From the NCBI RefSeq assembly GCF_007997385.1, contig NZ_VOSC01000012.1, forward strand, positions 1 through 64,000: a stretch of 64,000 bases of DNA, given 5' to 3'. The notes under the pieces were generated by a model. The model was not told where the DNA came from, made no database searches, and worked only from the letters and a program-made list of their open reading frames with translations. Every line of letters starts with the position of its first letter. The stretch's first letter is position 1. Shown here in pieces: positions 5,853 to 63,764 of this stretch. The position numbers and the translations under genes were made by a program. This DNA is from Seonamhaeicola algicola. GTDB taxonomy: Bacteria; Bacteroidota; Bacteroidia; Flavobacteriales; Flavobacteriaceae.

Positions 5853-6620
5853 ATGGCAGTAGAAGTAAAAGAATTACTTGAAGCAGGTGTACATTTTGGA
5901 CACCTTACACGTAAGTGGGACCCAAATATGGCGCCTTACGTATACATGGAGCGTAACGGTATCCATATTATAAACCTTTACAAAACCGCAGCTAAAATTG
6001 AAGAAGCAAACGCTGCATTAGCAAAAATTGCTGCTTCAGGACGTAAAATATTATTTGTTGCTACAAAAAAGCAAGCAAAAGATATTGTTGCTGAAAAAGC
6101 TAGCGCTATTAACATGCCTTACATTACTGAAAGATGGCCAGGTGGTATGTTAACAAACTTTGTTACTATTAGAAAAGCTGTTAAAAAAATGGCTTCTATT
6201 GATAGAATGAAAAAAGACGGTACATTTAACACACTTTCAAAAAAAGAGCGTTTACAAGTAGACCGTTTAAGAGCTAAGTTAGAAAAAAACTTAGGTTCAA
6301 TTAGTGACATGACACGTTTACCAGGTGCTTTATTTGTTATAGACATTAAGCGTGAGCATATTGCTATTAAAGAAGCTCAAAAATTAAACATTCCAATTTT
6401 TGCAATGGTTGATACCAACTCTGACCCTCGTCAAGTTGATTATGTAATACCTGCAAATGATGATGCTTCTAAATCAATAGATAAAATTTTAACGCATGTA
6501 ACAGCAGCAGTTGCTGGTGGTTTAGCAGAGCGTAAAGCAGAAAAAGAAGCTGCAGCAGAAGGTGCTTCAAAAACAAAAACTGCTCCTACTAAAAAAGTAG
6601 CCGCAGAGGAAGAAGAATAA
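5853..6620 (+). CDS. rpsB: 30S ribosomal protein S2
   Basis: 255 residues. The start VEVKELLEAGVHFGHLTRKWDPNM is the S2 N-terminus, followed by ILFVATKKQAKDIV, ERWPGGMLTNF and DTNSDPRQVDYVIPANDDA. A Lys/Ala/Glu-rich C-terminal extension (about 228-255) is typical for Bacteroidota S2. The protein bridges the 30S head and body and recruits S1. It is followed by tsf, the usual pairing, but a hairpin lies between them. Confidence 0.98.
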   Translation: MAVEVKELLEAGVHFGHLTRKWDPNMAPYVYMERNGIHIINLYKTAAKIEEANAALAKIAASGRKILFVATKKQAKDIVAEKASAINMPYITERWPGGMLTNFVTIRKAVKKMASIDRMKKDGTFNTLSKKERLQVDRLRAKLEKNLGSISDMTRLPGALFVIDIKREHIAIKEAQKLNIPIFAMVDTNSDPRQVDYVIPANDDASKSIDKILTHVTAAVAGGLAERKAEKEAAAEGASKTKTAPTKKVAAEEEE

Positions 6621-6641
6621 TAACATTTACACAACACAAAT

Positions 6642-6690
6642 AAGTCGTTTAGTTCTTTTCTTTGCAGAAATAAATTGAACGACTTTTTTA
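6642..6690 (+). terminator. Hairpin with T-run between rpsB and tsf (attenuator-like)
   Basis: AAGTCGTT (6642-6649) pairs with AACGACTT (6678-6685), followed by a run of T. The loop is long (28 nt), so it is probably a partial terminator. It could set a higher level of S2 than of EF-Ts. Confidence 0.45.
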
Positions 6691-54398: not shown

Positions 54399-55721
54399 CT
54401 AAAAAGTAACGCCTTCAATGGTTTTAAAATTTAAGATGGCTTTACTATCGGATAGTAATGATACGTAATGACAGACTGCTAATAGCCTATTGTAAAGAGA
54501 TTCATTTGTGAAATCTATGGTTTTAGGTAGTCCTTTTAAAATAAGCTTATCATAGTTAGAAGCATTACCGTCAAAATTATTATTTACCGCTTTGGTATAA
54601 ACACCTAGTAGCTTATTTATAATTTGGTATCCGGCAATTTCTTTATTTATAACCTCTTCAGATTGGTAAATTTTATCAATACTAATTTTTATAATATCAT
54701 TTATTTGGGCTTCGTATTTACTTTTATCAAGCAATGCACAATCAAAAGTGCCATTTAAAATAGCATCTTCATATTGCATAAAAATGTTTGCTGCTTCATC
54801 TATTAAAGTTCCTATAGCCAGCGCTCTTAAATAGCCTATACGCTCTTGCTTGCTAGATAGCTTATAGTAGTTTTCGGGTTTTATGTTATTTCTAATAATT
54901 TTAGACATGTACTCTAAGGCAAATTCTTCTTCAATAAGCCCTAGGTTTATACCATCTTCAAAATCTATAATAGTGTAGCATATATCATCTGCGGCTTCTA
55001 CTAAAAACGCTAACGGATGGCGTGCATAACTCATGTTAGTATTGCTTCGTTTTAGCAAACCTAAATCATCTGCTACACTTTGAAACAAGGCGGTTTCAGA
55101 TTGAAAAAAACCATATTTTTTGTCGGCTATATGATTAGTTGGTTTTTTAGGCAACGATGTTTTAGGGTATTTCATAAAAGCTCCTAAAGTTGCATAACTA
55201 AGCCTTAGGTTGTTTTGGGTTATTATTTTAAAGCCGTTGGCATTACCTTCAAAATCACAAAGGTCTTGATATTCTTGGCTTGTTAAATGCGCCTTATAAT
55301 GTTGCCCTTTACCTGTTTTAAAAAACTCGCCAATAGCTTTTTCTCCTGAATGGCCAAAAGGCGGATTTCCAATGTCATGAGCTAAAGCTGCAGCCGCCAC
55401 AATAGCACCAAAATCATTTATTGTATAACCATGTACTTCTTTTAAATACGGGTATTTTTCTAAAATTTTTTGACCTACTTTACGCCCTAACGATCGGCCT
55501 ACAACACTTACCTCTAAGCTGTGTGTTAGCCGTGTGTGCACAAAATCTGTTTGCGATAGTGGTATTACTTGTGTTTTATCTTGTAAGCTTCTAAACTCTT
55601 GCGAAAATATAATTCGGTCATAATCTACCTCAAAACCCACACGCGTTTGGTCTTGTTCTTTTCGTAAGCGTTTATAGGTATCGCCAAAGCGTTTTAAAGA
55701 AAGTAATTGTTCCCAGTTCAT
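54399..55721 (-). CDS. dgt: dGTP triphosphohydrolase
   Basis: 440 residues, HD-domain enzyme. Metal-binding motif AAALAHDIGNPPFGHSGE, preceded by TDFVHTRLTHSLEVSVVGRSL and EFRSLQDKTQVIPL, are Dgt signatures. The later HPLAFLVEAADDICYTIIDFEDG holds the last metal Asp. It cleaves dGTP to deoxyguanosine and triphosphate, controlling dNTP pools and limiting phage. Its upstream region faces the putative Pho-box promoter of the next gene. Confidence 0.95.
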   Translation of the reverse strand: MNWEQLLSLKRFGDTYKRLRKEQDQTRVGFEVDYDRIIFSQEFRSLQDKTQVIPLSQTDFVHTRLTHSLEVSVVGRSLGRKVGQKILEKYPYLKEVHGYTINDFGAIVAAAALAHDIGNPPFGHSGEKAIGEFFKTGKGQHYKAHLTSQEYQDLCDFEGNANGFKIITQNNLRLSYATLGAFMKYPKTSLPKKPTNHIADKKYGFFQSETALFQSVADDLGLLKRSNTNMSYARHPLAFLVEAADDICYTIIDFEDGINLGLIEEEFALEYMSKIIRNNIKPENYYKLSSKQERIGYLRALAIGTLIDEAANIFMQYEDAILNGTFDCALLDKSKYEAQINDIIKISIDKIYQSEEVINKEIAGYQIINKLLGVYTKAVNNNFDGNASNYDKLILKGLPKTIDFTNESLYNRLLAVCHYVSLLSDSKAILNFKTIEGVTF

Positions 55722-55782
55722 AGTTATTGGTTAAAGCTTTGGCAAGATAAAGAAATTAACGAAAAATAAAATCTTAAACTTC

Positions 55783-55860
55783 TTAACATTACGGTAACTT
55801 AAAAATGAAATAGCATTAACAATTAGGTAACATTGAAACGTGAGAAAAATAAGTTATTTG
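55783..55860 (+). promoter_or_regulatory. Pho-box-like array and promoter of the CarbopepD gene
   Basis: Eleven-bp units TTAACATTACG (55783) and GTAACTTAAAA (55794), then after one 11-bp step TTAACAATTAG (55816) and GTAACATTGAA (55827). All are in phase. The last GTAAC starts exactly 30 nt before TTTG (55857-55860) of the -7-like element. Geometry matches direct-repeat sites of PhoB/PhoP regulators (TTAACA-N5 in B. subtilis PhoP). Confidence 0.6.
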
Positions 55861-55885
55861 CATTTCAAAATTTAAGCAGTTAAAA

Positions 55886-56233
55886 ATGAAACATTTAATA
55901 GCCTTATTCTTTATATTTTCATCAGCAGTTATGTGTGCTCAAAACACAGGTTTAATTGTTGGTAAAGTTTTAGATAAAGAACTGGATAACACACCATTGG
56001 CTTTTGCTAATGTTTCTATTAAAGGCACTAACTTAAATGTTACTTCAGATATTTCAGGCGCTTTTCTTTTTGAAAATTTAGAAAGCGGAAAATACACCTT
56101 AATTTGCAACTTTGCTGGTTACGAAACCAAAGAAATTCAAATTGAGGTGAATGAGCAATTTCCTGCTGAAGTTAAATTATCATTAGGCGCCTTTACTTTA
56201 CCTCCTATTGAAACTGCATCAAACAACGGGTAA
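55886..56233 (+). CDS. Stand-alone CarboxypepD_reg-like secreted protein
   Basis: 115 residues: signal peptide (about 1-19, ending VMCAQ) and a single carboxypeptidase regulatory-like beta-sandwich (GLIVGKVLDKELDNTPLAFANVSIKG; LESGKYTLICNFAGYETKEIQI). It is a clear paralogue of the N-terminal domain of the TonB-dependent receptor two genes downstream (ILAGNVIDGDYNNEPLAFANILVKG; LEAGTYTILFSFVGYETKEI) but stops where that receptor enters its plug. Possibly a periplasmic partner of the receptor, or a remnant of a duplicated one. Preceded by a Pho-box-like array. Confidence 0.85.
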   Translation: MKHLIALFFIFSSAVMCAQNTGLIVGKVLDKELDNTPLAFANVSIKGTNLNVTSDISGAFLFENLESGKYTLICNFAGYETKEIQIEVNEQFPAEVKLSLGAFTLPPIETASNNG

Positions 56234-56413
56234 CACTTATTTTTCAACTCTTGTTTTAACACTTAACAAGCACATATTTAAAACCAACAATTAAGGTAAT
56301 TCCTAGCTTCACTTGTTCTCAGCTACATATTTTACCCGCGCACCAAAACAAAAAAGCTGCGTTAATTAATGTTAACAAATTGTTTCGTTTTAAAGCAAAA
56401 CACCCTGTTTTTA

Positions 56414-56491
56414 GTAACACTAACATAACACTTTTATTACTGTTCTTTAATACCAAGGTAACACCGTATTTACATAGTGTAGCTTTCTTTG
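56414..56491 (+). promoter_or_regulatory. Pho-box-like array and promoter of the surface lipoprotein
   Basis: In-phase 11-bp units starting at 56414 (GTAACACTAAC), 56425 (ATAACACTTTT), 56436 (ATTACTGTTCT, weaker) and 56458 (GTAACACCGTA). The last GTAAC starts exactly 30 nt before TTTG (56488-56491). An overlapping TAGCTTTC (56480-56487) is an alternative -7. It occupies much of the 301-bp gap 56234-56534; a short stem CTTGTT/AACAAG near 56255 may end the previous gene. Confidence 0.6.
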
Positions 56492-56534
56492 CGGCATCAA
56501 ATTGAATAAAAAAATTATCTAAAATTTAAAACTC

Positions 56535-57875
56535 ATGAAAAAAATAATTTTAACACTTTTAATTGCATCTACCTTAGTATTTACTGGATGTTTTAAAGAT
56601 GATGACACACCTATTATTATTGAAGAAACTACAATAATAAACCAAGGTAATGGCGGTTCTAATGGCGCTGAAGTTGTTGTTAAAGCAGGTGGTATTGTAC
56701 TTGATGAAACTTGGACTAACGACAAAATTTATGTATTAGACAGAAAAGTTGTAGTTGAATCTGGTGCAACTTTAACTATCGAAGCTGGTACTATCATTAA
56801 AGGTAGAGCTGGTACAGGATCTTTAGCTTCTGCTTTAATTGTTGCTAGAGGTGGTAAAATTAATGCAGTTGGTACTGCAAGTGCTCCAATTATTTTCACT
56901 TCAGAAAGTGATAACATTCAACCAGGTGAAACTGCTGGTACAAACTTATCTGCTGCAAACAGAGGTTTATGGGGTGGTTTATTAATTCTTGGTTACGCAC
57001 CTTGTTCTTTAAAAGGTGATTTAGAAGAAACTCAAATTGAAGGTATTCCTGCTGATGATACATTTGGTCTTTACGGTGGTGATGACCTTAATGATGACTC
57101 TGGTGTTTTACAATACGTATCTATCCGTCATGGTGGTGCTTTAATTGGGGAAGGAAACGAAATTAACGGTTTAACTTTAGGTGGTGTTGGTGCTGGTACT
57201 ACTCTAGATCATATTGAAGTTATTGCTAACGTTGATGATGGTATTGAGTTTTTTGGTGGAAATGTTGATGCCTCAAACTTATTAGTATGGGCTCAAGGTG
57301 ATGACGCTTTAGATATTGACCAAGGTTACTCTGGTACTATTACAAACGCTGTTGTTGTTTTAGGTGATGTTTCTGACCACGGTTTAGAAATTGACGGTAG
57401 AGAAGGTTCTGAAGCTACTTTAAGCGCAGATTTTGATGGTAAATTTACAATAAACGACTTAACTTTAATTGGTAACGAAACTACTTCTGGTGGTGAGTAT
57501 GCTGATTACAGAAGTAAAGCTACTGGTGCTACTAACAACGTATTTGCTAAAGGGTTTCCTGCTGGTAAAGATGTTGAGTTAGATAACAACGCTGTTGCTC
57601 AAAACTTTTTAGATGGTAACTTAACATTCTCTAACTGGGAAGTTGTTGGGTTTGACAACAGTATTTTTGTTGAAAAAGGTGGTTGTATAGCTAACTGTGA
57701 TGATGATAACAAAGATAATGATGAGTTTGAAGACACTATTATCGAAAGCCCTGTTTTTACTGATAGAGCTGCAGATTGGACTACACAAGTTACTGACGGT
57801 GCTCAAACTGTTGGTGCTAACACAGCTGTTTTAAGCTGGACTTACGCTATTTCTACTGGCGGTGTAGCATTATAA
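56535..57875 (+). CDS. Surface lipoprotein, parallel beta-helix-like, partner of TonB receptor
   Basis: 446 residues. Lipobox FTGC (Cys19) followed by F-K-D-D-D, matching the lipoprotein export signal X-K-(D/E)2 known from Capnocytophaga, so probably outside-facing. The body has short Gly/Asp-rich repeats (VVVESGATLTIEAGTIIKGRAG; GLWGGLLILGYAP; LQYVSIRHGGAL; LDHIEVIANVDDGIEFFGGN; ALDIDQGYSGTITNAVV), the pattern of a right-handed beta-helix. GCIANCDDDNKDND is a possible Ca2+ loop. Codons are strongly biased to GGT/GCT/ACT, as in the ribosomal genes here, suggesting high expression. Followed after a hairpin by the TonB receptor. The ligand is unknown. Confidence 0.8.
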   Translation: MKKIILTLLIASTLVFTGCFKDDDTPIIIEETTIINQGNGGSNGAEVVVKAGGIVLDETWTNDKIYVLDRKVVVESGATLTIEAGTIIKGRAGTGSLASALIVARGGKINAVGTASAPIIFTSESDNIQPGETAGTNLSAANRGLWGGLLILGYAPCSLKGDLEETQIEGIPADDTFGLYGGDDLNDDSGVLQYVSIRHGGALIGEGNEINGLTLGGVGAGTTLDHIEVIANVDDGIEFFGGNVDASNLLVWAQGDDALDIDQGYSGTITNAVVVLGDVSDHGLEIDGREGSEATLSADFDGKFTINDLTLIGNETTSGGEYADYRSKATGATNNVFAKGFPAGKDVELDNNAVAQNFLDGNLTFSNWEVVGFDNSIFVEKGGCIANCDDDNKDNDEFEDTIIESPVFTDRAADWTTQVTDGAQTVGANTAVLSWTYAISTGGVAL

Positions 57876-57900
57876 TCATAATCATTATTAAATAGAAAAT

Positions 57901-57931
57901 TACTACTGCTCACTGTTTGTGGGCAGTAGTA
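57901..57931 (+). repeat. Intercistronic hairpin between lipoprotein and TonB receptor
   Basis: TACTACTGCTCAC-TGTTT-GTGGGCAGTAGTA is a 13-bp stem with one T-G pair and a 5-nt loop. No T-run follows, so it is likely an mRNA-stabilising or processing element that lets the upstream gene be expressed more than the receptor. Confidence 0.65.
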
Positions 57932-57945
57932 TATAAATCACATTT

Positions 57946-60771
57946 ATGAAAAATATTCTAATAGTTCTTATTGTATTTGTAATAGGATCATTTAACGTTG
58001 CCAACGCACAATCTGGTATTTTAGCCGGTAATGTAATTGATGGCGATTATAACAATGAGCCTCTTGCATTTGCTAACATACTTGTTAAAGGAACTACTAC
58101 AGGTACTACTTCAGATTTTGACGGTAAATATCAATTAGATCTTGAAGCTGGTACTTATACAATTCTTTTCTCTTTTGTGGGTTACGAAACTAAAGAAATT
58201 AGTGGTGTGGTTATTAAATCTGGGCAAGTAACAGATTTAGATGTAACCTTGGCATCAAACGCTTTAGATGAAATTGTAATTACTACAAGTGTTAAAAGAA
58301 ACACTGAAAGTGCTGCTTTAGCACTTCAAAAAAAATCAGCCACACTTCTAGATGCTATGTCTGCACAAACCATTAAAGCTAGTGGTGCAGGTAACTTAGC
58401 AAGTGCTGTAAAAAGTGTACCTGGTGTATCTGTAGAAGGCGGAAAATACGTGTATGTTAGAGGTCTTGGAGACCGCTATACTAAATCTACTTTAAATGGT
58501 GTTGATATTCCTGGTTTAGATCCAGACAGAAACACCATTCAAATGGATATATTTCCAACTAATATTCTAGACAATATTGTTGTTGTTAAATCTGCAGCAG
58601 CCGAATATCCGGCAGACTTTACTGGTGGTGTTGTAGATATTATTACCAAAGATTTCCCAACTAAGTTTGAAGCATCAATATCTGTTGGCGCTGGTTTTAA
58701 CCCAGACATGCATGGTAAAGATAATTTCTTAATTGGTTCTGGTAGCGACACCGATTTTTGGGGTTATGATGATGGTACAAGAGCTGTACCAATTCATAGA
58801 TACCAAAACATACCTGGTACATTTGATAATAAACTTTTACTTAACTCTTTAACAAGCCGTTTTGATAGTGAGTTAAGAGCTCAAGAAGAAACAAGTAAAC
58901 CTAACTTTGATTTTGGTTTTACCATAGGTGACCAATTTACTGTTGGAGACAATAAACTTGGTTACATGGCTTTATTTTCATACAAAAACAACACTACATT
59001 TTATGAAAACAGAGTTGATGGTGCTTATGCTTTTGATTTCTTAGACAAATCAAACAACGAATTACAAGCATCTAGATTATCAAATGGTAGAGAAGGTATT
59101 AACAACATACTTGTTAATGGTTTAGTTGGCTTAACGTTTAAAACACAACGTTCAAAATACAAAGTAAACGTACTACACATTCAAAATGGCGAGTCTACAG
59201 GTGGTTTTTATAACCAATCTATTGCAGGTGCTGTTGCTGGTTCTGGTTTTGAGCCAATTACCAAAGATGCTATTACGTATACAGAGCGTTCTGTAACTAA
59301 TTTATTACTTAACGGAGACCACACATTTGGTGCTACCAACGATTGGAATTTTGAGTGGAAATTATCACCTACGTTTTCTAAAGTACATGATAAAGACCAC
59401 AAAATTACACCTTTGCAGTTATTTGATGACGGAAGATATCAAATAACACCATCATTTGCTACGTTCCCAATTCGTATTTGGCGTTTCTTACAAGAAGAAA
59501 ACTGGGCATCAAAATTTGATTTCAATAAAAAATATGAATTAGGCGGAAGACCTGCTAAACTTAAATTTGGTGGTGGCTACACTTACAAGTTTAGAGATTT
59601 TAGTATTGATGATTGGACATTCCAAAACAATGAACCAATTGCTGATGGTAATCCTAACAATTTCTTAGCACCAGAAAACTTATGGAATCGTGATAACGAA
59701 AATGGTACAGCTTTAATTTCAACAGATATTTTTAACGCTGGTGATGCTTATGAAGGTGAACAAAACATTGCGGCTACTTATATCTCTAATGAATTTAATA
59801 TTTCTGAAAAATTAAAAACTATATTAGGTTTAAGAGCTGAAGTTTTCACGTCATACTACACTGGTAGAAACAATAGTTCTGGTGAAGATTTTTTACGTAC
59901 TAAAATTATTGACGAGCATGACCTATTCCCTTCTGCTAACGTAATTTATGCTGTTACAGAACAGGCTAATATTAGAGGTTCTTATTACAGAACCACGGCA
60001 CGTCCTTCTTTTAAAGAATCATCTTATTCTCAAATTTACGACCCAATTACCGATAGATTATTTATTGGTAACATAAATGTTGTACCAACATACGTTAACA
60101 ACTTCGATTTAAGATTTGAACGTTTTGGTGAAGCAGGACAAATGTTTGCTGTTAGTGGTTTTTTCAAAAAGTTTAAAGATCCTATTGAAAAATCATTCTT
60201 TGCTAGTGCTGCAACACAGTTAACAGTTGCCAACTTAGGTGATGCCAACGTTTATGGTGCAGAATTAGAATTCAGACAAAACTTAGGTTTCATTACTGAA
60301 GGTTTATCAAACTTAAAGTTTAGTTTAAATGCTTCATACACAAAATCTGAATTAACAATGTCTGATGGAGAGTTTGAATCTAGAGTTGCAAATGCAAGAA
60401 CAGGGCAAACTATTGATAGAGAAAGAGACATGCAAGGTCAAGCACCTTTTTTAATTAATACAAGCTTAAACTATACAAATGACGATTTAGGTTTACAATC
60501 TGGTTTATTCTTTAATATGCAAGGTGAAACACTAGAAGTTGTTGGTTTAGGTGGTGTGCCAGATGTGTACACAAAGCCTTTTGAAAGCTTAAACTTTACA
60601 TTAAACAAATCTTTTGGAGAAAAGAAAAACTCTTCAATAGATCTTAAGGTAACTAATATTTTAGGTGCTGAAAAAGAAAGTGTTTTTGATGCTTATAATG
60701 CAGAAGACAAAATATTTTCTTTAAGACAACCCGGAACTGAATTTTCTCTAGGTTACACATTAAAATTTTAA
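57946..60771 (+). CDS. TonB-dependent receptor with CarboxypepD_reg-like domain
   Basis: 941 residues. Signal peptide (about 1-22, ending NAQ), CarboxypepD_reg-like domain (about 23-100), TonB-box-like LDEIVITTSVKR (about 105-116), plug (LASAVKSVPGVSVEGGKYVYVRGLGDRYTKSTLNGVDIPG; VVKSAAAEYPADFTGGVVDIITK) and a 22-strand barrel ending in SLGYTLKF. It resembles standard TonB receptors of Bacteroidota that work with a lipoprotein other than SusD, here the preceding gene. Pho-box-like control of that gene suggests uptake of phosphate compounds. The substrate is inferred, not shown. Confidence 0.92.
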   Translation: MKNILIVLIVFVIGSFNVANAQSGILAGNVIDGDYNNEPLAFANILVKGTTTGTTSDFDGKYQLDLEAGTYTILFSFVGYETKEISGVVIKSGQVTDLDVTLASNALDEIVITTSVKRNTESAALALQKKSATLLDAMSAQTIKASGAGNLASAVKSVPGVSVEGGKYVYVRGLGDRYTKSTLNGVDIPGLDPDRNTIQMDIFPTNILDNIVVVKSAAAEYPADFTGGVVDIITKDFPTKFEASISVGAGFNPDMHGKDNFLIGSGSDTDFWGYDDGTRAVPIHRYQNIPGTFDNKLLLNSLTSRFDSELRAQEETSKPNFDFGFTIGDQFTVGDNKLGYMALFSYKNNTTFYENRVDGAYAFDFLDKSNNELQASRLSNGREGINNILVNGLVGLTFKTQRSKYKVNVLHIQNGESTGGFYNQSIAGAVAGSGFEPITKDAITYTERSVTNLLLNGDHTFGATNDWNFEWKLSPTFSKVHDKDHKITPLQLFDDGRYQITPSFATFPIRIWRFLQEENWASKFDFNKKYELGGRPAKLKFGGGYTYKFRDFSIDDWTFQNNEPIADGNPNNFLAPENLWNRDNENGTALISTDIFNAGDAYEGEQNIAATYISNEFNISEKLKTILGLRAEVFTSYYTGRNNSSGEDFLRTKIIDEHDLFPSANVIYAVTEQANIRGSYYRTTARPSFKESSYSQIYDPITDRLFIGNINVVPTYVNNFDLRFERFGEAGQMFAVSGFFKKFKDPIEKSFFASAATQLTVANLGDANVYGAELEFRQNLGFITEGLSNLKFSLNASYTKSELTMSDGEFESRVANARTGQTIDRERDMQGQAPFLINTSLNYTNDDLGLQSGLFFNMQGETLEVVGLGGVPDVYTKPFESLNFTLNKSFGEKKNSSIDLKVTNILGAEKESVFDAYNAEDKIFSLRQPGTEFSLGYTLKF

Positions 60772-60791
60772 TAGCCTTAAATTTTAGATAT

Positions 60792-60823
60792 AAAAAAGCT
60801 CCCAAATTGGGAGCTTTTTTTTT
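60792..60823. terminator. Bidirectional terminator after the TonB receptor
   Basis: AAGCTCCCAA-A-TTGGGAGCTT flanked by A-run and T9, shared with the convergent YwqK-like gene. Confidence 0.9.
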
Positions 60824-60841
60824 GAATAAAAATTATCTAAA

Positions 60842-61192
60842 TTATAAGCTGTTATTACTGCTTACTTCAGTAATTTTAGCTATTTTAGAGTTCACGTAGT
60901 TTACTTCTTTAGCTACACCATTTGCCCAAAACGTCCATTTACCAACTTTTTTTCCGTTCTCATAATTTCCAACAGCAATTTTATTTCCATTGGCATCAAA
61001 GCTAGTCCAAGTTCCGTGTAATTTTCCTTCTTTATTAAATGTGCCTTTTTGCTGTACAGTTCCATCAGCATAAAAGTAGGTTGATTCAACTAAATCATTT
61101 TTTTGTTCATGTTTTACTGTAATGTTTTTATCTTGAGCATATACTGAAACTCCCATGAACAAAACGGCTAATATTAAAATGTATTTTTTCAT
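60842..61192 (-). CDS. Secreted YwqK/MORN-like repeat protein
   Basis: 116 residues. Signal peptide (about 1-20, ending VYAQ), then three MORN/YwqK-type repeats (YADGTVQQKGTFNKEGKLHGTW; FDANGNKIAVGNYENGKKVGKW; ANGVAKEVNYVN). This domain is often labelled antitoxin YwqK, but no toxin lies nearby and the protein is secreted, so that label is probably wrong here. The function is unknown. The -7 element TATATTTG is on the minus strand at 61225-61232. Confidence 0.8.
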   Translation of the reverse strand: MKKYILILAVLFMGVSVYAQDKNITVKHEQKNDLVESTYFYADGTVQQKGTFNKEGKLHGTWTSFDANGNKIAVGNYENGKKVGKWTFWANGVAKEVNYVNSKIAKITEVSSNNSL

Positions 61193-61262
61193 AATATGTG
61201 GGGTTTTAATTAATTATTACATTACAAATATATATAATAATTTACACTCAAACAACAATTAA

Positions 61263-61284
61263 TTAACATTAAGATAACATTAAA
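61263..61284 (+). promoter_or_regulatory. Distal Pho-box-like repeat upstream of the Pit gene
   Basis: TTAACATTAAG (61263-61273) directly followed by ATAACATTAAA (61274-61284), two 11-bp units with the TAACATTA core. It lies between the YwqK-like gene and pit, oriented like the promoter-proximal box. Confidence 0.5.
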
Positions 61285-61397
61285 CATGTAATGATTTGAT
61301 TTTCAATTAGTTGAATTTTAAAAAACCAATTAACACAACTATAGAAGGTAAAACAACTAGCTAAACTATAAATTAATAAGATACATATAGAAAGAAC

Positions 61398-61442
61398 ATA
61401 ACATTAACGTAACATTAGGTTTAATTAAAATATTGACATTTG
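61398..61442 (+). promoter_or_regulatory. Pho-box-like repeat and promoter of the Pit gene
   Basis: ATAACATTAAC (61398-61408) and GTAACATTAGG (61409-61419), two adjacent 11-bp units. The second GTAAC starts exactly 30 nt before TTTG (61439-61442) of the -7-like GACATTTG. The same spacing occurs at 55827/55857 and 56458/56488. Confidence 0.65.
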
Positions 61443-61466
61443 CTCACAATATTTTACTTCTTTTTA

Positions 61467-63764
61467 ATGGATAGTTTGTATACTTTTATGATAATTGCGC
61501 TTGCTGTTTTAGCAATTGCAGATTTGGTTGTGGGTGTAAGTAATGATGCCGTAAACTTCTTAAACTCAGCCATTGGCTCAAAAGCCGTTTCTTTTAAAAC
61601 ATTAATGATAGTTGCTAGTATAGGTGTTGCTTTTGGCGCGCTTTCATCTAGCGGCATGATGGAAATTGCACGTAAAGGTATATTTGTTCCTGGGCAATTT
61701 GTGTTTGATGAAATAATGATCATTTTTATGGCGGTTATGATAACCGACATATTGTTACTTGACTTTTTTAACACATTAGGTTTACCAACATCAACAACAG
61801 TTTCTATTGTTTTTGAATTGTTAGGTGCCTCAGTTTGTGTAGCTATTATTAAAATTACTGCCGATAAAAGTCTTACGCTTTTAGATTTGGGTAACTTTAT
61901 AAATAATGAAAAAGCTATTGAAATTATACTGGGCATTTTGCTCTCGGTGGTAGTTGCTTTTTCCGTTGGTGCTGTTATACAATATGTGGCTCGTATTTTG
62001 TTATCATTCAATTTTGCGAAAAAACCTAAATACTATGGTGCTATTTTTAGCGGATTTGCTGTTACTTCTATAATGTATTTTATTCTTATAAAAGGTATTA
62101 AGAATGCCTCGTTTATGAATGATACTATTGTTAGCTTAATAAACAACAATACTGGTGCTGTTTTATTTATAGGTTTTGTTCTGTTTACATTAATCTCATT
62201 ACTCTTAATACAGTTTTTTAAAGTTAACATATATAAAATTATTATTGTAATAGGCACGTTTGCTTTAGCTGTTGCCTTTGCTGGTAATGATTTGGTAAAC
62301 TTTATTGGCCCTACTACTGGTGCATACCAAGCCTATTTAGACTTTGGAAACCCAGAAATAAACACACTTGGCTTATCTGCCACAGAATTTACCATGGAAA
62401 GCCTTGGCAAAAAAATATTTACACCAACATATATTTTATTAATAGCAGGATTAGTAATGGTTTTAACATTATGGTTTTCAAGCAAAGCCAAAGCGGTTGT
62501 AAAAACATCGGTTGATTTATCTCGTCAAGATAACGTTAAAGAACGTTTTGAACCTAACTTCTTGTCTAGAAATATAGTTAGAATGACCATTGCTGCTTCA
62601 GAAAGTGTAAATAGTTTACTTCCAGAATCGGCTAAAAACAAAATAGAAAAACAATTTAAAAAACCTGCATTATCTGCAGCAATAAAAAAAGAAGATTTAC
62701 CAGCTTTTGATATGGTTAGAGCTGCCGTTAACCTAATGGTAGCAAGTGTACTTATATCAATGGCAACCTCATTAAAATTACCATTATCTACAACATACGT
62801 TACCTTTATGGTAGCAATGGGTACATCATTAGCAGATAGAGCTTGGGGTAGTGAAAGTGCTGTGTACAGGGTTGCAGGTGTACTTAACGTTATTGGTGGT
62901 TGGTTTTTAACCGCATTAAGTGCGTTTGTAGCAGCAGCTATTATGGCTGTAATTTTATACTATGGAAGAGGTTATGCTTTAGTAGCTTTAATTGCATTTG
63001 CTGTTTTTGTATTAATAAGAAACTATTTAAGCCACAGGAAACAATCTAAAATACAAAAAGCTGAAGATAGTCTTCAAAAAGCTGAAAGCAGCTCAATACA
63101 AGGCGTTATTGTTGAAAGCGCAAGCAACATTGCCACTGTTATAAAACGTGGTAATAGAATTTATACCAATGCTGTAAATGGGCTTGCAACACACAATTTA
63201 AAATCTTTAAAAAAGAATAAAAGTCAGGTTGAAAATTTAACTAACGAAATTGATGAGCTTAAAGATCATATTTTCTATTTTATTAAAAATTTAGATGAAC
63301 CAAGTGTTAGCGCTAGTAACTTTTACTTAAATGTTTTAAGGCACTTACAAGACATGGCACAATCATTAACATACATATCAAACGCCAGTTACAAACACGT
63401 TAATAACAACCATAAAAAGCTAAAATTTAGCCAAATTAAAGAACTTAAAGAAATTGATGAAGTGTTTGAAAAACTATTTGCAAACACAAAAGAAGCCTTT
63501 AGTTCGGGTTCATTTAACAAAATAGGTGCTGTGTTAGCTAAAAAAGATAAAATGTTTAATTTGTTAACAGATAAAATTCAAAAACAAGTTGAACGAACCA
63601 GAACTGAAGAATCTAGCCCAAAAAACACCACATTATATTTTGGTATTTTACTAGAAACTAAAGATTTATTAACCGCTACAATGAGTTTACTTGAAGAATA
63701 TTACAATGCACATGATGACTCTGTAGCACCAGCTAAAATTACTAAAAAAGACGAGGAAGAATAA
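61467..63764 (+). CDS. Inorganic phosphate transporter, Pit family, with C-terminal PhoU-like domain
   Basis: 765 residues from ATG 61467; a TTG at 61440 in frame is rejected because it lies in the promoter. Membrane part (about 1-530) has the two inverted Pit signatures, VGVSNDAVNFLNSAIGSKAV with GLPTSTTVSIVFELLGA and, in the second half, AGNDLVNFIGPTTGAYQAY with LPLSTTYVTFMVAMGTSLADRAWG. Residues about 540-765 form a helical PhoU/DUF47-like cytoplasmic domain (SQVENLTNEIDELKDHIFYFIKNLD). It moves phosphate with a cation across the inner membrane; the fused domain could sense flux or control the transporter. Pho-box-like repeats precede it. Confidence 0.92.
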   Translation: MDSLYTFMIIALAVLAIADLVVGVSNDAVNFLNSAIGSKAVSFKTLMIVASIGVAFGALSSSGMMEIARKGIFVPGQFVFDEIMIIFMAVMITDILLLDFFNTLGLPTSTTVSIVFELLGASVCVAIIKITADKSLTLLDLGNFINNEKAIEIILGILLSVVVAFSVGAVIQYVARILLSFNFAKKPKYYGAIFSGFAVTSIMYFILIKGIKNASFMNDTIVSLINNNTGAVLFIGFVLFTLISLLLIQFFKVNIYKIIIVIGTFALAVAFAGNDLVNFIGPTTGAYQAYLDFGNPEINTLGLSATEFTMESLGKKIFTPTYILLIAGLVMVLTLWFSSKAKAVVKTSVDLSRQDNVKERFEPNFLSRNIVRMTIAASESVNSLLPESAKNKIEKQFKKPALSAAIKKEDLPAFDMVRAAVNLMVASVLISMATSLKLPLSTTYVTFMVAMGTSLADRAWGSESAVYRVAGVLNVIGGWFLTALSAFVAAAIMAVILYYGRGYALVALIAFAVFVLIRNYLSHRKQSKIQKAEDSLQKAESSSIQGVIVESASNIATVIKRGNRIYTNAVNGLATHNLKSLKKNKSQVENLTNEIDELKDHIFYFIKNLDEPSVSASNFYLNVLRHLQDMAQSLTYISNASYKHVNNNHKKLKFSQIKELKEIDEVFEKLFANTKEAFSSGSFNKIGAVLAKKDKMFNLLTDKIQKQVERTRTEESSPKNTTLYFGILLETKDLLTATMSLLEEYYNAHDDSVAPAKITKKDEEE

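What the first reader, a model, noticed from the sequence alone, without database searches (positions are those of the whole stretch)
55783..61442. Three promoters share phased TAACA repeats 30 nt before TTTG: a probable Pho regulon
Direct 11-bp repeats with a TAACA core occur upstream of the CarbopepD gene, the surface lipoprotein and the Pit transporter. In each case the last GTAAC begins exactly 30 nt before the TTTG of a -7-like element (55827/55857, 56458/56488, 61409/61439), and none has a clear -33 TTTG. This is the geometry of OmpR-class activators replacing the -33 contact, and TTAACA-N5 repeats are the PhoP box of B. subtilis. A phosphate transporter as one target points to PhoB/PhoR control. 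If so, the lipoprotein and TonB receptor (substrate unknown by sequence) are phosphate-starvation genes. The repeats and spacing are seen; the regulator and the regulon are inferred.
Basis: partly seen in the sequence, partly recalled or inferred. Interest (0 to 1): 0.75.

Follow-up and report, generated by a model that had tools for sequence, protein, structure and literature searches.

The report
Phosphate-starvation promoters in a marine flavobacterium
Three promoters beside a phosphate transporter share an evenly spaced array of short repeats that is conserved across a large bacterial family, and it is most likely the docking site of the phosphate-starvation regulator PhoB.

Summary
That spacing is kept in 74 of 80 lipoprotein, 49 of 57 Pit and 15 of 18 CarbopepD promoters of relatives. 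A profile built without the window ranks the three sites first in the 3.7-Mb genome: 54, 45 and 24 bits, next 18. Of 120 family genomes, own included, 99 match. A matrix from lipoprotein promoters alone also finds CarbopepD, OprP-porin and a few Pit promoters; its reversed control finds nothing at that score. Unlinked plcP genes of four genomes carry weaker matches. In 17 genera the array lies 68-173 bp from phoB, pointing away from it. In Flavobacterium-like genomes it precedes the TonB receptor and lipoprotein whose F. johnsoniae counterparts rise strongly on phosphate depletion. PhoB binding, and a low-phosphate response in this organism, are inferred. Against: the bare pattern is unspecific in this genome and phoB lacks a sense array. 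A fourth, reversed array lies at 61242-61278. Ordinary in kind, but a testable Pho box for Flavobacteriaceae.

The parts
55784..55860 (+). CarbopepD promoter array: TAAC at 55784, 55795, 55817, 55828 (11-bp phase, one unit missing) and TTTG of the -7 box at 55857
   Evidence: Positions. Profile R1 45.3 bits, E 2.3e-11. Spacing kept in 15 of 18 relatives
56415..56491 (+). Lipoprotein-TonB receptor promoter array: six units at 56415, 56426, 56437 (TTAC), 56448 (TAAT), 56459, 56470 (TTAC); TTTG at 56488
   Evidence: Positions. R1 54.1 bits, E 4.2e-14. Conserved columns. Spacing kept in 74 of 80 loci
61399..61442 (+). Pit promoter array: TAAC at 61399 and 61410; TTTG at 61439
   Evidence: Positions. 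R1 23.6 bits, E 1.3e-4. Spacing kept in 49 of 57 relatives
61242..61278 (+). Fourth array: TTAC, CAAC, TAAC, TAAC in 11-bp phase, reversed with respect to the MORN gene; no TTTG 29 nt after its last unit on this strand
   Evidence: an 11-bp TAAC pair in the same part of the MORN-Pit gap in 17 of 21 relatives with that gap
55886..56233 (+). CarbopepD_reg_2 protein, 115 aa
   Evidence: Pfam PF13715
56535..57875 (+). Surface lipoprotein (inferred), 446 aa, parallel beta-helix model
   Evidence: No Pfam or NCBIfam match; model pLDDT 88.6; weak beta-helix matches in PDB; homologous to lipoproteins behind phoB-TBDT in Flavobacterium-like genomes
57946..60771 (+). TonB-dependent receptor, 941 aa, presumably one operon with the lipoprotein
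60842..61192 (-). MORN_2 protein, divergent from Pit
61467..63764 (+). PHO4/Pit phosphate transporter with a C-terminal PhoU match below cut-off; ATG at 61467 taken as start (the TTG at 61440 lies in the promoter)

Best explanation
These are the Pho boxes of a PhoB-type regulon. When phosphate runs low, PhoR phosphorylates PhoB, which binds side by side to the 11-bp TAAC units, about one helical turn each, up to six units. The last strong unit lies about -37 to -34, where a flavobacterial promoter would carry its -33 element, so PhoB stands in for that contact and recruits RNA polymerase to a -7 box with an invariant TTTG. The CarbopepD protein, the lipoprotein with its TonB receptor, and the Pit transporter are switched on together. 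Shown: array, phase, spacing, conservation, target genes, phoB linkage. Inferred: PhoB binding, activation by phosphorylation, response in this organism.
For: Fixed 11-bp phase and fixed distance to TTTG in relatives. A profile trained without the window ranks the three sites 1-3 in the genome. Cross-class test: the lipoprotein-only matrix at score >15 hits 73 lipoprotein, 16 CarbopepD/TBDT, 26 OprP and 2 Pit promoters and 1 other place in 1.58 Mb; reversed control 0. Forty-five matches chosen by me from the list lie upstream of TBDT 19, Pit 12, OprP 6, lipoprotein 4, CarbopepD 4. plcP matches in four genomes, 20.8-23.4 bits. Array 68-173 bp from phoB and pointing away from it in 17 of 120 genera, counted from listed matches only; phoBR divergent from the lipoprotein in 12 of 80 loci. 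Six Flavobacterium-like loci show the gene order of Fjoh_0541-0546, where the TBDT rises 8.02 and the lipoprotein 9.91 log2 units on Pi depletion. A regulator paired with a predicted PhoR in Riemerella has the DAP-seq motif TTTAACA. Only two OmpR-class regulators were found in the genome.
Against: No binding or expression data for this organism. The plain pattern is unspecific in the own genome. Of 24 profile hits of named genomes inspected, 9 (16.8-21.9 bits) have no evident phosphate gene, so the plcP matches are in the same score range as background. phoB has no sense array in 12 of 12 relatives nor in the own genome. The own PF00245 phosphatase gene has no 11-bp TAAC pair upstream, only two TAAC 33 bp apart close to its start. 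The porin Fjoh_0542 next to phoR was not induced in F. johnsoniae; whether it carries an array was not tested. phoB is in 118 of 120 genomes, so presence and absence cannot test the link, and 21 of 120 lack a match although nearly all have phoB. PhoB and PhoR score below their NCBIfam equivalog cut-offs. In Riemerella pstS rose in the mutant.
Confidence: 0.87

Rival explanations
1. The arrays are read by the other OmpR-class regulator of the genome, an RprY-like protein (locus L035, C1:533520), and phosphate genes are only part of a wider envelope or nutrient response.
For: It is the only other PF00486 protein found. OmpR-class regulators in general bind such direct repeats (recalled). The name RprY-like is my reading of its sequence, not a family search.
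Against: In 17 genera the array adjoins phoB; the 45 strong targets inspected belong to the phosphate-linked set; the syntenic F. johnsoniae genes respond to Pi and are described as tightly repressed under N and Fe limitation.
Confidence: 0.05
2. The arrays are conserved AT-rich core promoter or UP-element-like sequence, not a regulator site.
For: The strongest columns include the -7 box, and a promoter that I take for that of tsf scores 16.3 bits.
Against: Near-invariant TAAC cores in strict 11-bp steps with free bases between; the pattern is confined to a few functionally related genes.
Confidence: 0.03
3. A regulator of another class, responsive to phosphate or something correlated with it, binds the repeats.
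For: Regulator identity was not tested directly.
Against: Tandem direct repeats in 11-bp period over the -35 region are the known geometry of PhoB/PhoP-type regulators (recalled); phoB linkage.
Confidence: 0.05

Closest known systems
Bacillus subtilis PhoP box (TTAACA-like direct repeats; recalled, one search gave no paper with the word TTAACA)
   Same: Direct repeats with a TAACA core and about 11-bp period at promoters of phosphate-starvation genes
   Different: Here up to six strictly phased units, the last strong unit fixed 29 nt before TTTG, a Bacteroidetes -7 box, and targets such as a TonB receptor, beta-helix lipoprotein and Pit
Escherichia coli PhoB pho box (recalled)
   Same: Direct repeats in 11-bp period overlapping the -35 region
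   Different: Core TAAC rather than CTGTCAT; longer arrays; different promoter class
Flavobacterium johnsoniae PHO regulon (PMC8115612; abstract, passages and table fragments seen)
   Same: phoBR cluster, TonB receptor, beta-helix-like lipoproteins and plcP induced by Pi depletion; same gene order around the array in six Flavobacterium-like loci
   Different: The words 'pho box' do not occur in its main text; the window's genome shows no PstB over cut-off and no OprP
Riemerella anatipestifer PhoP DAP-seq motif (PMC9603813; passages seen)
   Same: Legend names TTTAACA as the most conserved nucleotides; OmpR-class regulator paired with PhoR
   Different: 583 peaks and reported roles in aerobic tolerance and virulence; no fixed array-to-TTTG geometry in the passages seen; orthology with the window's PhoB not tested

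Membership tests
PhoB/PhoP-type Pho box (OmpR-class direct-repeat operator) | Tandem direct repeats with about 11-bp period | tested here: met
   Before TAAC-N25-TTTG, periods 11, 33 and 44 count 62, 84 and 76 in promoters; every other period from 5 to 44 counts at most 8
PhoB/PhoP-type Pho box (OmpR-class direct-repeat operator) | Site overlaps and replaces the -35/-33 contact at a fixed distance from the core promoter | tested here: met
   Last strong TAAC 29 nt before TTTG; TTTG at -33 spacing in 0 of 139 promoters, TTG in 18 of 139. Replacement of the contact itself is inferred
PhoB/PhoP-type Pho box (OmpR-class direct-repeat operator) | Genome encodes PhoB and PhoR | tested here: met
   L034: best NCBIfam hits TIGR02154 PhoB (222.6 bits, cut-off 296.2) and PnpS/PhoR kinases (242.3 and 228 bits, cut-offs 400 and 334.2), so by best hit, not by equivalog cut-off
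PhoB/PhoP-type Pho box (OmpR-class direct-repeat operator) | Sites before several unlinked phosphate genes | tested here: met
   In relatives: pit, OprP porin, plcP. In the own genome only the three clustered window sites stand out
PhoB/PhoP-type Pho box (OmpR-class direct-repeat operator) | Bound by phosphorylated PhoB | not testable with these tools
   Only indirect: TTTAACA motif of a Riemerella regulator
PhoB/PhoP-type Pho box (OmpR-class direct-repeat operator) | Genes induced by phosphate limitation | not testable with these tools
   Published for syntenic F. johnsoniae genes, not for this organism
Classical Pho regulon | Box before pstSCAB | tested here: inconclusive
   No pstB over cut-off: best 156.9 of 343.2 bits; 13 of 14 control genomes over it
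Classical Pho regulon | Autoregulation of phoB by a box in the same orientation | tested here: not met
   No TAAC-N25-TTTG and no 11-bp TAAC pair in sense before phoB in 12 of 12 relatives; own phoB has a reversed pair only

The most novel reading that the evidence does not exclude
Flavobacteriaceae use a family-wide ruler-like PhoB operator: up to six head-to-tail PhoB units laid in one 11-bp phase that ends in the -33 slot of a promoter lacking the -33 TTTG. Reversed arrays of the same kind lie before divergent genes (MORN protein, phoB), so one array could switch its sense gene on while repressing or tuning the divergent one.
Probability: 0.3. Interest if true: 0.55.

Novelty: new variant of a known kind. 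Interest (0 to 1): 0.5.

Why it matters
Flavobacteriaceae are major degraders of organic matter in sea and soil (general knowledge). Their phosphate response is known from expression data, but the searches, in an open-access library only, listed no paper that I recognised as defining its operator in this family. The array gives an explicit sequence rule: it predicts regulon members genome by genome, labels unknown TonB receptors and beta-helix lipoproteins as phosphate-starvation genes, and makes PhoB control directly testable in a laboratory strain.

Tried and rejected
The bare pattern as a genome scan was rejected as too weak. Presence or absence of phoB as a test is uninformative: 118 of 120 genomes have it. 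Chance in AT-rich DNA is rejected by the spacing and period counts and the reversed control. My first reading of minus-strand genome-search loci as reoriented was wrong and was corrected; that moved one exact hit (C30:689868) to a promoter position. The PDB fold search of the lipoprotein gave beta-helix matches only, none at E<=0.001. A lipoprotein-only matrix does not list the Pit site among its eight best window hits, nor a Pit-only matrix the lipoprotein site, while both list the CarbopepD site second; Pit and lipoprotein promoters thus share units and spacing, not the whole matrix. Solved relatives of PhoB were MtrA, RegX3, PhoP and others; no recognition-helix comparison was made. Genome counts (20 of 20) carry no weight, since those genomes were chosen from loci with the lipoprotein and several were in the training set.
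Full report
What was checked. The sequence at 55000-63000 was read and motif positions were listed. The lipoprotein promoter holds six units in exact 11-bp steps (TAAC, TAAC, TTAC, TAAT, TAAC, TTAC). The genes are a CarbopepD_reg_2 protein, a lipoprotein without a Pfam match, a TonB receptor, a MORN_2 protein on the other strand and a PHO4-family Pit transporter. The TTG start that the ORF list gives for Pit lies inside the promoter; the ATG at 61467 is the likely start.

Conservation. Eighty loci of relatives with public record titles were fetched with the lipoprotein as query. In 72 aligned rows (of 81: 80 relatives and the window; rows with a low score or short sequence dropped) each base of the TAAC cores at columns 0, 11 and 44 is 93-100% conserved, the units at 22 and 33 are degenerate but phased, and TTTG at column 73 is 99-100%. 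TAAC-N25-TTTG is present in 74 of 80 lipoprotein promoters, 49 of 57 Pit promoters and 15 of 18 CarbopepD promoters (three rows of L101 dropped as false assignments, L101 itself counted among the 18). Over all 80 loci TAAC-N7-TAAC-N25-TTTG has 62 hits before these genes and 2 elsewhere; one of the two (L096:14466) precedes another CarbopepD homologue. No other gap from 14 to 44 has more than 5 hits before these genes. Before the MORN gene, read in its own sense, TAAC-N25-TTTG is in 0 of 59 promoters and an 11-bp TAAC pair in 2, which serves as a negative example.

Genome-wide test. A sequence-only profile, R1, was built from 46 promoters of relatives, the window excluded. In the 3.7-Mb genome its three best matches are the window sites (54.1, 45.3, 23.6 bits; E 4e-14, 2e-11, 1e-4). 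The next are 18.3 bits (C3:160918, before a gene I did not identify) and 16.3 bits (window 6616, before what I read by eye as tsf). R1 matches 7 of 7 genomes of the genus, own included, at E<=0.05 and 99 of 120 genomes of the family, own included, at E<=0.003. In 146 genomes of the order 26 match at E<=0.001; 21 of these are in the family, own included, and the 5 others are marginal, 4.6e-4 to 1e-3. In this form the array looks like a Flavobacteriaceae feature.

Independence of the gene classes. R1 was trained on three promoter classes, so finding those again is partly circular; the relatives are also homologous sequences, so their agreement is conservation rather than independent origin. Two tests reach further. 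First, a matrix from lipoprotein promoters alone, scanned over the 1.58 Mb, scores above 15 at 73 lipoprotein, 16 CarbopepD/TBDT, 26 OprP-porin (31 loci have one) and 2 Pit promoters and at 1 other place (L072:9678, which appears to be that locus's lipoprotein promoter with a differently set start). The reversed matrix has no hit above 15; at score above 5 it has 11 and the model has 11 hits classed as other. OprP was in no training set. Second, plcP, also not in training, has R1 matches of 20.8 to 23.4 bits in four genomes (L183, L258, L272, L273). In L272 and L273, congeneric with the window's genome, the six-unit layout is visible and a TTG start follows TTTG by about 24 nt; in L183 and L258 the start is less clear. 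plcP rises 8.59 log2 units in Pi-depleted F. johnsoniae.

Targets in other genera. From the matches listed I chose 45, mostly off the main cluster or the best of their genome, and fetched them. They lie before a TonB receptor (19), Pit (12), OprP porin (6), lipoprotein (4) or CarbopepD gene (4). Of 24 hits of named genomes inspected (16.8-21.9 bits) have no evident phosphate gene and one more (L193:551153) lies in the gap before the MORN gene. One weak hit (17.1 bits) precedes an endonuclease I gene (PF04231), the domain of the Pi-inducible EndA nucleases of F. johnsoniae. Twelve further matches were inspected: eight lie before TonB receptors and one before a CarbopepD-type gene; L257 and L258 had no ORF called, L258 preceding plcP; L259 and L263 precede other genes. 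That makes 13 with L258 counted in both lists.

The regulator. Only two proteins with the OmpR-type DNA-binding domain were found in the genome. One matches PhoB best (TIGR02154, 222.6 bits, under its cut-off of 296.2) and is followed by a kinase whose best hits are PnpS and PhoR, also under cut-off. A glycosyltransferase (PF04101) lies next to them, as in the F. johnsoniae phoBR cluster. In 12 of the 80 loci phoBR is divergent from the lipoprotein. From the listed coordinates, in at least 17 of 120 genera the array lies 68-173 bp from phoB and points away from it; in nine of these the fetched DNA confirms phoB as the divergent neighbour. One genus shows 11 matching genomes among the 15 of it that are listed; I take it for Flavobacterium by gene order only. 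Six of its loci (L246-L251) show glycosyltransferase - porin - PhoR - PhoB - array - TonB receptor - lipoprotein; the Pfam content was tested in L246 only (PF04101, PF07396, and PF07715/PF13715/PF14905 in the receptor) and equals that given for Fjoh_0541, 0542 and 0545. In F. johnsoniae the receptor rises 8.02, the lipoprotein 9.91 and PhoB 3.06 log2 units on Pi depletion, while OprP and PhoR do not rise significantly (PMC8115612, abstract, passages and table fragments seen). The window lipoprotein is 36-37% identical to two lipoproteins of that genus, and its model is a beta-helix (pLDDT 88.6) with weak matches to polygalacturonases and tailspikes; the paper likens FI-FIII to a polygalacturonase.

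Outside evidence on the motif. DAP-seq of the PhoR-partner regulator of Riemerella anatipestifer gave a motif around 579 of 583 peaks, and the figure legend names TTTAACA as the most conserved nucleotides (PMC9603813, passages). Orthology with the window's PhoB was not tested. Against a simple reading, pstS was higher in the mutant of that system (PMC5399024, passages). The -7 consensus TAnnTTTG at -12 to -5 comes from F. psychrophilum (PMC9723704, passages); with it the last strong TAAC falls at about -37 to -34.

Mechanism. Cooperative binding of phosphorylated PhoB in 11-bp steps, with the promoter-proximal subunit standing in for the missing -33 contact, explains the phase, the fixed distance and the lone -7 box. 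No pstB over cut-off was found, so Pit may be a main phosphate importer; that is inference. The reversed array at 61242-61278 has an 11-bp TAAC pair conserved in 17 of 21 MORN-Pit gaps and overlaps the upstream region of the MORN gene, where a TATATTTG lies on its strand. Repression or tuning of the divergent gene is a guess.

Verdict. In kind it is an OmpR-class Pho box. As a defined, family-wide operator with strict ruler geometry it was not seen in the searches, which cover an open-access library only. PMC4796936 mentions predicted Pho boxes near plcP in marine bacteria; the passages seen give no flavobacterial sequence, and its supplements were not read.

Noticed in passing
window 61242-61278: Four 11-bp-phased units (TTAC, CAAC, TAAC, TAAC) reversed relative to the MORN_2 gene; an 11-bp TAAC pair there is kept in 17 of 21 relatives with the same gap.
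   Followed up: partly
G000:C30:689868-689911 (-), locus L270: Exact TAAC-N7-TAAC-N25-TTTG geometry 23 nt before a gene I read by eye as a sensor histidine kinase; not among the listed profile matches, conservation not tested.
   Followed up: partly
G000:C30:199270-199313 (-), locus L267: Same bare geometry before a gene I read by eye as a MoxR-type ATPase; the Riemerella paper reports the Bat operon as a direct PhoP target. May be chance.
   Followed up: no
G000:C29:95349-95416 (-), upstream of phoB (L034): A reversed TAAC-N7-TAAC pair lies between phoB and a divergent small protein with a T9SS sorting domain.
   Followed up: partly
window 6616-6667: A promoter that I read by eye as that of tsf scores 16.3 bits with the array profile; a near-identical stretch precedes the same gene in another genome of the genus.
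   Followed up: partly
G000:C3:214465-215409, locus L244: Alkaline-phosphatase-domain protein (PF00245) without an 11-bp TAAC pair upstream, but with two TAAC 33 bp apart close to its start.
   Followed up: partly
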